Of a stretch of DNA of 64,000 nucleotides, positions 2,477 through 64,000 are shown piece after piece. This DNA is from Lepidurus packardi. Lineage: Eukaryota > Arthropoda > Branchiopoda > Notostraca > Triopsidae. The notes under the pieces were generated by a model, which was not told where the DNA came from, did not search any database, and saw only the letters and a list, made by a program, of their open reading frames with translations. The first letter of the stretch is position 1; every line of letters begins with the position of its first letter. The stretch is taken from positions 5,828,001 to 5,892,000 of the forward strand of contig JAKZAN010000005.1 of NCBI GenBank assembly GCA_023053545.1, given 5' to 3'. Position numbers and translations under genes: made by a program.

Positions 2477-5400
2477 TTACTTGACAAAAGCATCAGGCGG
2501 AATCTGTCCAGCCTTGTTCAACTCTGTGAACACGAATGCAGCTTTCTCAAAATCCCATCCGTTTTCTTCCAAGCACCTAAAAACCAGTATTAATCAGTGT
2601 GACTTTAATTTGACAGGACGAAATCAACTTACTTTACGCTCCAGTCTAAACTCATTCCAGACTGCGCTGCAAAAGCTGCGATCATTTCTTGCCTCACTGC
2701 AGGATTAGCAACTTGGGCCACCGGAGAAGTAACCAACAAAGGAGACACCCCTAGTGTACCAGTACCAACTGAAGAAGTAACAACCTGTGCGTGCGGGTTT
2801 GGTGACGAAGAAGGTGTGGGATCTGGGGCCTTGAACGACGCCTAAAAACCATCTTGTTTAACTTTCATGCGTTTTAAGACTCAAACTAAAATTACCTTAA
2901 TTTGCTGTGCTGAAGCAACTGTAACGAATAACTCTTCGTTTACAATACAATACCCTCCGTTGAAGGGCATAATGACGAAAACTCGATGGAAAGATCGCAC
3001 GATGCCATACCGCTCTTCTCTTTCCTTGAAAACGCCACGAACACTTAAAACCATCAAATGAGTCTATGGAATAACAGGCAAATAGGATTAAAATCTATCT
3101 TTCTTTCAGATCTTAGACTCAATCATACGGATGAAACAGGAACGTCTACGATTAATGATGCAGGATCATGTTGGGTGGCAGGTAGTTGACCCAGGAAAGC
3201 AACAATGGCGACTTTGCCTTGGTGCAGTAAGCGAAGACGTCGGGCATCGTCAGCTCGCTTCAAATTACGATTCCCACTCATGTAAGCGCCCAGCCTAAGA
3301 TTTCACGATACATTTAAAAAAAAAATCTGACCTTCGATAATTATAATAGGCCAATTTAAACACAAAATAATTACTTGTTGCCAGATGCTGCGGATTGATT
3401 GGCAGGATAACCACAGGTTAAGGAGAAATTGGCTTGATCATGGTAGGCGTCTACTAACGGCTGTCGATTATTGGAGTCATACAACGCGAAATATTGGTCC
3501 AAAAAGACTACCGCCACTTGTCGACCGCTATCCGATACAAAAAAGGATCCTGTCGAGGGTGCAATTTTTGTATCTTCCGCATCCAAATCAAAGCTGATGG
3601 GCGGTGGCAATTCAATTCCATCCTAGATTAACAGACAAAAGTGTTAAATTTTTTCTATTTTATACATAAATAGGAATAAAATTGTACTTACAAGGCGAAT
3701 GACTTTAGGAAAACGTTTCCTTACAGCGCTGGGAAGACAAAAGGGGCCAAAGGGTCACGGAGTCGGGAGAAGAAAACAGACATACGCAAAATCTCATTAA
3801 GAACTGCCCTGCTTCAACTAACAATCAATTTAATCGGTGTGGGAATTAACTTTTGGTGTTACAAGTGGTCGATATTTGTCTGTTTACTTACTTTGAGTGA
3901 AACTGGAATTTGAAATTAATTTCCCATACAAAACTGAAACATTAACCCGCAATCTTTAGTGCTTTTCTATGCTTAAAAGAAGAGAGGAGTTGGGGAGGTA
4001 GAAGAAGAGATTTACTGTTAAGCAAGCAGTTTCTCACTTTGAAAAAATTACATTCAAAACCGAAGACAGAACTCGCTTTACGCAGGAAAGTACAAACTAC
4101 AACACTCCATTACTGGTTAAGCGCTTATTTTTTTAGTGTTCTTTTTTTCATTTCTTTTTTATGCTCTTTATTTTTTTATTATTATTTTTACTTCTTTTTA
4201 TTTTTTTGTCCATTTTTTTTTAACTCCACTTATTTTTTTCTCTTTTATGGAGGGCTTTTCTGTGGCTTTGCAAATTAAATACAAATAAAGGGGATCGATA
4301 GGCAAGTCGAAAACCGATGGATTCTGATGACGGTCGAAACTGGCGGATGTGCCAAACTTTTGACGCACCAGTGAAGAGACGAACTGGTCCATTTTTTCTT
4401 TGTTGAAGATCAGCTGATCATTGTAGAGCAGAATTTGTGCACGTAAACGGTCCCAATGAAGATTTTAAGACTAAAAGCTTAATTCCGGCTTGGTCGGCCA
4501 CGTCTCCTTGCAGGCTCGAAGGTCACCATCGCCGGTTTAGTTACAGAAGCGCGCAGTTTTCTTCCTCTCGACGCACTCAAAGCATCCGAGTTTCTTATCT
4601 TGATAATAACAAGTACTTGTAGGACCAAGTATTTGTAGGCGAAATTTGGACGAAATTGACTTAGACGAAATTTGCATACGATCCAGGAACTCCACACGGA
4701 GTTTCCAAGTTGAACAATGCAGCCACAAACACTCAGCGACTACATTCGAGGCGAAGGGTGAGGGTTACTTTTCACAATCGAAGGGAAGGGATAACATATT
4801 TCTAGCCACAGAGCCATTTCTTCTTTTCTTTTTTCTCTTTTTTTTTCTTTCTTTCTTTTCTTTTTTTTCTTCACCAGTAAGGACACCCAGAATCAAACTA
4901 GCAAAAGCGAGCTTAGTCTTCGTAGATAATTACTTTTGCAGTGTAACTATTTCCTAAAAAATTCTTAAAACCTCCATTCCCCAACCCACTCCTCCAAAAG
5001 GGGGCAAAACAATAGCCCATGAAAGTCATTTTCATTTTGGAAACCCCAGCTTCCTCTCTAGTAACACAGACTAAAACGATTCACTTGGAATCCCCACTTT
5101 TTCACTTTTAGTGAAAAAGGAGCTAGATTTAAGATACCTTCCATTGCAGCAACTAACTTCCGTTGAAAAACAGATCAATTCATGGATATAGTACTACCGT
5201 ACCAATACACCGTAGATAAAAAGAACGAAGGTTACCTGACATAAGTACTTTGGTCCTGGATACGGTCGCACAAGGGATTGCCTTCAAGCCACAACTCCTC
5301 CAAGTTCAACCCCTCCAATTTATCCAAAGCGAGAACATTGTTCAGCTACAAGAACATTTTGAAAATATACAGAATTAGAAAAATTTCGAATAGATGAAAC

Positions 5401-6624
5401 GTTGTTTTAATACCTTGTTCTTGGTTAAATTGAGAGACTTCAGGTTCACAGTCACGTTAATCAAGGGTCGTAATTGGTCAAGGTTGAAAAGTTTGTTGTC
5501 TGATAGGTCTAGTGCGACAATTTCGGGTACATGGGAGATCAGAACGCCTACTACACACTGCATGACGTTATCGCGGCTCAGTGGACAATAAAAATCTTCG
5601 CGCAAATCTATACACAAAAAATAAGTAAACTAAAGGAGAATTTATACATGATTTTACCATCATCCAGGTGAAACTTGGATAATGACAACGCGCGGGTGGC
5701 CAAATTATACCGCTTGTTCATAACGAGCTTTATTCGCTCTTTCAGCTCATCATTAATGGGTAAGCTTGGCGGTGGACACCGATTGGTCAATAAACTGAGC
5801 TGGAAATTAGAACCACAATATTTCAGAAAGTCCTAATTAGAAAATTAGAAAGTACTTTTAAACCGTCGTCAAGAGTGATTTGTCTATCTAATTGCCGTAA
5901 GGCTTGGGCTGCTTCAGAATCTTCAACATAGAACACAGCACTTTTCCCTTCAACATGATACTAAAAGAGAAATTTTAAATTTGGAATTTCAACGCCGGAA
6001 AACTTACGTAAACTGGAATGAAAGGCTTTGCGGTGGCGTTAAGGAGAGTTTTAAGAATGTAGTCTTTGGCATAGCGAGCACCTTGATTTATACAAATTCG
6101 GTTCCAGCCAGGACCACCTGAATGCTGCTGTCTTCCGTTCATGAGAGGTCTGGGACCTCTGTTTTTCCCATACCTGCCTCCGCGTTGACCATAAGGAGAG
6201 CTAGAGAATTTTAAAACAGTAATTTATTATGACACATTTATTTAAAAGAAAAAAAAATATTACAATCTAGGCTGTCCAGAAGCGGACACTGGGCCACCTC
6301 CCATTTCTACATCGTCGTTGTCTAGCTGATTTCTGATTCGGGATGCGCTCACAGTTTGTCGTTGTCTGTGTCTGTCAATGCGTCCTCCTTTGGGCCCATT
6401 TGCATTTCTTCTGCTTCCATCGTTTCCTCTTCCGTCGTCATGTTCTGTAAGTAGGTAAAGAAGTTAAGACGTCACGAGGTGAAAACTCTGAAAGGGAGAT
6501 GGACTGAAATACAAAGCTTACCATAATAATCATTTCGCCTACTATCTTGATCACTTTCGCGAATAAATCTTCCTGTTGTCTCACCCTGCCCACGACCTTT
6601 TCTGTTTCGATAATTCTTGGGCAT
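2477..6624 (-). CDS. NXF1: Nuclear RNA export factor 1 (NXF1/TAP), complete, 13 exons
   Basis: General mRNA export receptor: with NXT1 it binds mRNP and carries it through the nuclear pore. Exons read from the right: 6624-6522, 6444-6264, 6200-6008, 5960-5856, 5799-5658, 5607-5414, 5345-5236, 3728-3692, 3622-3375, 3294-3129, 3063-2896, 2841-2633, 2576-2477. They join in frame to 651 codons (human protein about 619). Domains seen: an Arg/Gly-rich N-terminus ([13 protein letters not shown]), an RRM-like domain (exons 3-5), leucine-rich repeats ([34 protein letters not shown]), an NTF2-like domain (from [10 protein letters not shown] through [10 protein letters not shown] and [10 protein letters not shown]) and a C-terminal UBA-like TAP-C domain ([20 protein letters not shown]). 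All introns are short except the 1.5 kb one at 3729-5235. The start is the first ATG. It is divergent from the C9orf85 gene. Confidence 0.96.
3729..5235 (-). promoter_or_regulatory. Long NXF1 intron between 110-nt and 37-nt exons (candidate cassette intron)
   Basis: This is the only long intron of NXF1; the others are 50-80 bases. It follows a 110-nt exon and precedes a 37-nt exon. If retained, translation stops after one further codon (AGG then TAA), giving a protein of about 343 residues that ends after the leucine-rich repeats. In transcript sense it holds A-rich tracts (T-rich as written) at about 4130-4250 and 4820-4875. I find no convincing coding exon in it. Confidence 0.6.
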
Positions 6625-6754: not shown

Positions 6755-7223
6755 TATTGGGGTGCTAGTAGTGAGTAAAAACCGACGCGAAACGCGATAC
6801 GGTAAAAAGCAAAACGGCATGCGAAACTTCCTGTTAAAACGAATACTATAAATTGAAAGGAATCAAATGTTAAAGTATAAAGTACATTTAAATAATGTTT
6901 AAAAATTATATAACGTAGACTAAACTAACCTACTTCCAAAATTGCACGAACCTTACAAGTTTCAGACGTAATCTAACCAAATTTACTTAAATTATAAGTT
7001 TAGTTTGGTAAATTAATTTAGCTTAGCATTTTAAGGTGTTTTACCAATCCAGTACGATATATCTTCGTTATTTAAAAGATATTTAAGTTTTTTAAACTTA
7101 ATTAGCTGTCAACCAATGAAAGAGAAATTTCGCACCTCGTTTCGCGTTTCTAACTTTAGCGTGGCTTTAAAGGAAAACAATACAATCCAGCGTGGAAAAG
7201 TCATCGAAAGTTTCCGAAGAAAA

Positions 7224-7951
7224 ATGAGCTCTCAAAGAGGAAATGTTAGTCGAACTCGCACCCAGAAACATGCCAATGTGACAGTATTTAAGAATAATAA
7301 ACACGGAGATACTCCTAAAACCAAGCTTTTGAATACGTTACAAGTAAAACGTCCTGTTCCTGAAATTAAAATTCATATTTAATTTATTTAAAAATTCTAG
7401 GTTTCGAATGTGTGTCGCAAGTGTCAAGACATTCTAGAATGGAAAATCAAATTTAACAAGTACAAGCCGTTGTCAGCACCCGCGAAATGCTCTAAATGCA
7501 TGGAAAAAACGATCAAGTTGGCCTATCACACTCTTTGCCAATCATGCGCCGAAAAAACGGGCGTGTGCGCTAAATGTTGTCAAAAAGATGAGATTGTGAC
7601 CAAACCAGGACCATCAGCTATCGAAAAAGCTCGCCTAGAGAGCCAGTTTCAAAAAGAACTTAAAACCCTTTCCGAGAGGAAACGGAGAACCTTTTTACGT
7701 TATTTAAGGAAGAAAGACGAAGGTACAAATCTCGCGTAACCCTTACCAAAACTTTTATTATTAAATATCTGTCTCTATTAGACCATGAGGAAGGTGAAGG
7801 ATACAAGGAAAGCGCAATTGAAGAAGCCAAAACAAGGTTAGGAGAGCTGAAATCTGGAAAAGAAGATGAAGAAGACGGTTGGAGTGATTTAGACGATCTG
7901 AGTTTAGGATCTGGTGACGAAGAAGACGAAGATAACGTTTCCAGCAATTAA
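7224..7951 (+). CDS. C9orf85 family protein (DUF2039), complete
   Basis: Conserved eukaryotic protein of unknown function. Exons 7224-7343, 7401-7722 and 7782-7951 join to 203 codons (human C9orf85 is about 180). The start MSSQRGNVSRTRTQKHANV matches the family's N-terminal signature (MSSQKGNV.R.R.QKHQN). The central part holds paired CxxC motifs (CRKC, CSKC, CQSC, CAKC) typical of its zinc-binding domain, with the conserved block ILEWKIKFNKYKPL. The C-terminus is acidic (EDEEDGWSDLDDLSLGSGDE). An upstream in-frame opening exists from 7116, but the internal ATG at 7224 is the family start. Its stop is 50 bases from the stop of the convergent Speedy gene. Confidence 0.93.

Positions 7952-26027: not shown

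Positions 26028-37177
<11,150 letters not shown>

Positions 37178-54564: not shown

Positions 54565-64000
<9,436 letters not shown>

What the first reader, a model, noticed from the sequence alone, without database searches (positions are those of the whole stretch)
3692..5345. NXF1 exon-110 / long intron / exon-37 block: candidate regulated cassette intron
The NXF1 exons around the only long intron are exactly 110 nt (5345-5236) and 37 nt (3728-3692). This exon-110/intron/exon-37 arrangement is the reported conserved block of NXF1 genes, in which the intron (intron 10 in human, carrying a constitutive transport element) is retained in some transcripts and makes a short NXF1. Here all other introns are 50-80 bases, this one is 1.5 kb, and retention would stop translation after one codon. 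In transcript sense it is A-rich in two places. The autoregulatory intron thus seems kept in this lineage, possibly with A-rich tracts rather than a vertebrate-type element.
Basis: partly seen in the sequence, partly recalled or inferred. Interest (0 to 1): 0.75.

Follow-up and report, generated by a model that had tools for sequence, protein, structure and literature searches.

The report
NXF1 gene with one long intron
The mRNA-export gene NXF1 in this compact genome has one long intron, between exons of the lengths reported around an intron that some human messages keep on purpose, but nothing in the sequence yet shows that this organism does the same.

Summary
A 13-exon NXF1 gene (ATG 6624, stop 2477, minus strand, 651 aa) has exon 7 of 110 nt (5345-5236), intron 7 of 1,507 nt (5235-3729, phase 2) and exon 8 of 37 nt (3728-3692); the other 11 introns are 47-80 nt. 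The junction lies in the codon aligned with human Ser339, with no gap around it. That human intron 10 lies there, between 110- and 37-nt exons, is recalled, not checked.

The regulatory reading is plausible but untested. The immediate stop occurs in 4 of 4 phase-2 introns of the gene, and the long intron's splice sites are among its best. Introns of about 2.4 and 3.0 kb occur in a myosin gene of the same window. A-rich tracts occur elsewhere in the window. No Rfam family and no outstanding fold was found. No relative's intron and no RNA data could be examined. If retained, the intron would give a 343-aa protein with RRM and LRR only. Filed as a new member of a known kind, function unproven.

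The parts
2477..6624 (-). NXF1 gene, coding part, 13 coding exons, 651 aa
5236..5345 (-). exon 7, 110 nt, end part of the LRR domain
   Evidence: aligned without gap to human NXF1
3729..5235 (-). intron 7, 1,507 nt, phase 2, CAG|GTAACC ... TTCCCAG; the candidate retained intron
3692..3728 (-). exon 8, 37 nt, between exon 7 and the LRR-NTF2L linker
4808..4882 (-). A-rich polypurine tract in intron 7 (4876-4813 at least 95% A/G in 50-nt windows)
4120..4250 (-). A-rich tract in intron 7 with three AATAAA hexamers (4202, 4180, 4172)
5038..5119 (-). best local fold of the intron: a 10-bp hairpin followed by a stem with small internal loops; not exceptional against controls

Best explanation
This is the old NXF1 intron (counterpart of human intron 10) in a gene that appears single-copy. 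Most transcripts splice it out. My best guess is that some transcripts keep it, as in humans and Drosophila, either held in the nucleus or exported. Those would encode a 343-aa protein with the RNA-binding RRM and LRR but without the NTF2L and UBA domains, so keeping the intron would lower full-length NXF1 output or make a short NXF1. Shown here: the gene, its exon and intron boundaries by sequence, the human residue aligned at the junction, and the product predicted on retention. Recalled: that human intron 10 lies at that residue. Inferred from other species: that retention happens and that it matters.
For: The junction is in the codon of Ser343, aligned without gap to human Ser339 (alignment; numbering counted by hand from residues named in PMC4330390 passages), and the flanking exons have the recalled human lengths. 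Human intron 10 retention with a CTE: passages of PMC5602073, PMC6478720 and PMC8758631. An intron-containing sbr (Drosophila nxf1) transcript, more abundant among sbr transcripts in the fly head: passage of PMC8151460. It is the only intron over 80 nt among 12. No second NXF gene was found (limits in Tried and rejected).
Against: No RNA evidence of any kind. Splice sites are strong for this gene: donor 7 of 9 consensus matches (best value, shared by 6 of 12 introns) and 85% pyrimidine before the acceptor (highest of 12), which does not suggest inefficient splicing. Rfam matches in the block are all far under their gathering scores, none in the window reaches one. Folding is no better than controls: 3 of 71 sense windows below z -2, against 5 of 71 antisense and 6 of 150 random. 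Introns of about 2.4 and 3.0 kb occur in a myosin gene of the same window, so 1.5 kb is not exceptional here.
Confidence: 0.45

Rival explanations
1. An ordinary, constitutively spliced intron. Its position is old, and it grew by neutral sequence accumulation, including A-rich low-complexity tracts; there is no regulated retention.
For: Strong splice sites. Longer introns in another gene of the window. A-rich tracts occur at 0.13 per kb on both strands together in 200 kb of the same genome, and six other such tracts lie in the window. No structure or RNA family. The matches of the intron elsewhere in the genome all fall on its two A-rich tracts.
Against: The one long intron is the one thought to correspond to the intron retained in human and fly. 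Two tracts in the intron are more than the sampled rate predicts (about 0.2 expected on both strands; Poisson P about 0.02 by hand, before allowing for coding sequence in the sample and for after-the-fact choice). Strict polypurine stretches were absent from the 200-kb sample.
Confidence: 0.4
2. Premature ending inside the intron: the A-rich tract at 4250-4120 with AATAAA hexamers acts as an intronic polyadenylation signal, giving a short mRNA with the same 343-aa product but no full retention.
For: Three AATAAA hexamers at 4202, 4180 and 4172 in sense, with a GTTTG at 4097 downstream.
Against: AATAAA is likely by chance in such an A-rich stretch; no downstream element was properly tested; no 3'-end data.
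Confidence: 0.08
3. The intron is long because it houses something else: an enhancer, a promoter, a nested RNA or a poison exon.
For: Long introns often hold regulatory DNA (general knowledge). A purine-rich tract of the splicing-enhancer kind is present (the likeness is recalled).
Against: No Pfam match over its cut-off in 7 of the 14 intron ORFs of at least 50 codons, no Rfam family at its gathering score, no tRNA. By the simple rules used, two internal acceptor candidates (4739, 3966) were found besides the real one, and nine donor candidates, so a hidden exon is not excluded.
Confidence: 0.07

Closest known systems
Human/vertebrate NXF1 intron 10 with a constitutive transport element
   Same: Orthologous gene; junction aligned with human Ser339, which by the recalled exon lengths is the intron 10 site; retention here would leave RRM and LRR and remove NTF2L and UBA, as a C-terminally truncated protein is made in human (PMC5602073 passage).
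   Different: No CTE shown here; the 96-nt human element (PMC6478720 passage) could not be compared because its letters were not available; no RNA evidence.
Drosophila sbr (Dm nxf1) intron-containing transcript
   Same: An arthropod nxf1 gene with an intron-containing transcript (PMC8151460 passage). That it is the intron between 110- and 37-nt exons, and that it bears poly(A)-like tracts, is recalled from Ivankova 2010 and Mamon 2013, not read.
   Different: Expression shown in the fly, not here; sequences not compared. That the window's organism is an arthropod was not tested.

Membership tests
NXF1 (TAP) orthologue | Tap RNA-binding domain, LRR, NTF2-like and TAP_C (UBA-type) domains in order | tested here: met
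   Pfam PF09162, PF24048, PF22602, PF03943 all over cut-off; human NXF1 is the best PDB match
NXF1 exon-110 / intron / exon-37 block | exons of 110 and 37 nt around an intron at the end of the LRR | tested here: met
   for the lengths and phase; that this is a defined block of NXF1 genes is recalled, its source paper was not found in the library, and human boundaries were not checked
NXF1 retained intron with constitutive transport element | a CTE stem-loop with NXF1-binding internal loop inside the intron | tested here: inconclusive
   no Rfam match near its gathering score (whether Rfam holds a CTE model was not established); best local fold z -2.55 to -2.99, within control range
NXF1 retained intron with constitutive transport element | cytoplasmic intron-retaining mRNA | not testable with these tools
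   no RNA data
NXF1 retained intron with constitutive transport element | short NXF1 protein translated from it | not testable with these tools
   only the predicted 343-aa product
Drosophila-type intron with poly(A)-like tracts (recalled) | A-rich tracts conserved among relatives | tested here: inconclusive
   tracts present; one scan of viral contigs gave no relative, and relatives of this genome are not held

The most novel reading that the evidence does not exclude
The A-rich and polypurine tracts are a poly(A)-mimicking export element without a vertebrate-type CTE fold: bound by poly(A)- or SR-type proteins, they would let the intron-retaining NXF1 mRNA leave the nucleus and make a short NXF1 that tunes mRNA export.
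Probability: 0.1. Interest if true: 0.65.

Novelty: new member of a known kind. Interest (0 to 1): 0.3.

Why it matters
If the intron is retained here too, self-control of the main mRNA export receptor through one intron would be seen in a further lineage, and the lack of an evident CTE would ask what replaces it. As it stands the sequence shows only a gene structure that fits the one reported for other NXF1 genes.

Tried and rejected
Immediate stop on retention as evidence: rejected. All 4 of 4 phase-2 introns of the gene stop after one codon, and one phase-0 intron does too (5 of 12 in all).

Length as evidence: weakened. Hand reading gives seven myosin introns of about 2.4 kb, 3.0 kb, 110, 160, 550, 65 and 270 nt (good to a few codons; one stretch, about 60,531-61,249, was left out because chain residues between are missing and may be a further exon). 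Two of seven exceed 1.5 kb. A genome-wide intron-length count was not obtained.

A-rich tracts as evidence: weakened. At 50-nt windows with at least 65% A, 26 tracts on both strands in 200 kb of own-genome sample (20 stretches picked by hand, 8 of them within about 100 kb of the window), 2 in the intron, 6 others in the window. In favour: stretches of at least 95% purine or pyrimidine in 50 nt were 0 in the sample and 3 in the window, one in the intron and two around pure T runs.

Structure: the best sense window z was -2.99, the antisense control's best -3.30, the random control's best -5.12.

Nested gene: none found; 7 of the 14 intron ORFs listed were scanned, with one sub-threshold match (E 0.06). 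Transposon origin: other genome matches fall on the A-rich tracts only (4 candidates scored in each).

Paralogues: the protein search gave 11 matches, all in this gene (10 candidates scored). The NXF_NTF2 family gave one further place, under cut-off, beside RGG-rich sequence and G3BP-like by eye. The LRR family gave nine further places; one of these reaches the cut-off when joined with its neighbours (C3:3879624) and lies in a 454-aa ORF that looks like a PX-LRR protein by eye; the other eight, under cut-off, were not followed.

Relatives in viral contigs: four pattern matches, none a relative. Sigma-70 promoter scan: not meaningful in a eukaryote.

Full report
What is there. The minus strand of 6624-2477 encodes NXF1, the main mRNA export receptor: 13 coding exons, 1,956 nt of CDS with the stop, 651 aa (boundaries set by GT-AG and protein alignment, not by RNA). 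Pfam finds the Tap RNA-binding, LRR, NTF2-like and TAP_C domains, and the best solved relative is human NXF1 (6e5u, E 6.8e-124). The genome of 108.6 Mb yields no second NXF that I could recognise (eight weak LRR places not followed).

The block. Exon 7 is 110 nt and exon 8 is 37 nt, with a 1,507-nt phase-2 intron between; the other 11 introns are 47-80 nt. The human protein aligns without a gap through both exons. Counting by hand from the linker residues Ile360, Phe362 and Val364 named in PMC4330390 (passages), the intron interrupts the codon aligned with human Ser339 (Ser343 here). That human exons 10 and 11 measure 110 and 37 nt, and that this block was described as conserved, is recalled from Mamon et al. 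2013, which was not found in the library. If so, equal exon lengths simply follow from shared intron positions in an ungapped stretch. No call gave human exon boundaries, so neither this position nor those of the other introns was compared directly.

What the literature held says. Human NXF1 intron 10 can be retained; a CTE in it is bound by NXF1, and a C-terminally truncated protein is made (PMC5602073 passages; PMC8758631 passages; PMC6478720 passages). In Drosophila an intron-containing sbr transcript is more abundant among sbr transcripts in the head, and it is called unknown whether it is a specific target of SBR (PMC8151460 passages). In the rows listed (20 of 296, 20 of 84, 20 of 127, 15 of 307, 1 of 1, 10 of 64 and 10 of 46 papers; open licences only) no title concerned NXF1 introns in an arthropod other than Drosophila; a Daphnia epigenome paper listed has no occurrence of nxf1.

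Does the sequence show regulation? Not by itself. (a) The early stop: in a phase-2 intron with a GTAA donor the first full intron codon is TAA; 4 of 4 phase-2 introns here behave so, and one phase-0 intron also stops after one codon. (b) Splice sites: the donor (CAG|GTAACC) matches consensus at 7 of 9 places, the best value, shared by 6 of 12 introns, and the acceptor has the most pyrimidine-rich tract of the 12 (85%); nothing marks it as weak. (c) Length: the non-muscle-myosin-like gene at 54.4-64 kb has introns of about 2.4 and 3.0 kb among seven read by hand. (d) A-rich tracts: two in sense, 4882-4808 and 4250-4120. The sampled rate is 26 per 200 kb on both strands, so about 0.2 were expected in the intron; a modest excess, and the sample includes coding DNA, where such tracts should be scarce. 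The window also holds pure T runs of 56 and 41. Strict polypurine stretches, however, were absent from the sample. (e) Structure: the best fold (5135-5036) has z about -3, but the antisense and random controls hold better ones (-2.55 on refolding). (f) Rfam: nothing at gathering scores in the whole window and six matches of E 0.83 to 6 in the block. (g) The matches of the intron elsewhere in the genome fall on its A-rich tracts only.

If it is retained. The product would be residues 1-342 plus one Arg: RNA-binding module and LRR, without NTF2L and UBA. By analogy with human this could be a cofactor or a competitor; by default such an mRNA would be expected to be detained in the nucleus or degraded (general knowledge). 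Either outcome would couple NXF1 output to splicing of this intron. I put a functional retained form at 0.45 and an ordinary intron at 0.40; these are judgements.

Verdict. The claim of an autoregulatory intron with A-rich elements is a reasonable hypothesis carried over from human and fly, not something this sequence demonstrates.

Noticed in passing
about 7116-7950, + strand: A DUF2039 (PF10217, E 3.6e-23) gene lies head to head with NXF1; its first ATG as read by eye is about 490 nt from that of NXF1, so the two may share a promoter.
   Followed up: partly
29504-29559 and 35575-35615: Pure poly(T) runs of 56 and 41 on the + strand. All 8 of 8 A/T-rich tracts found in the window at the 65% threshold have T on the + strand, against 9 A and 17 T in 200 kb of sample.
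   Followed up: partly
54604-64000, + strand: Motor-domain exons of a gene whose best solved match is non-muscle or smooth-muscle-type myosin II heavy chain, with introns of about 2.4 and 3.0 kb near its start; matches run to the window's end.
   Followed up: partly
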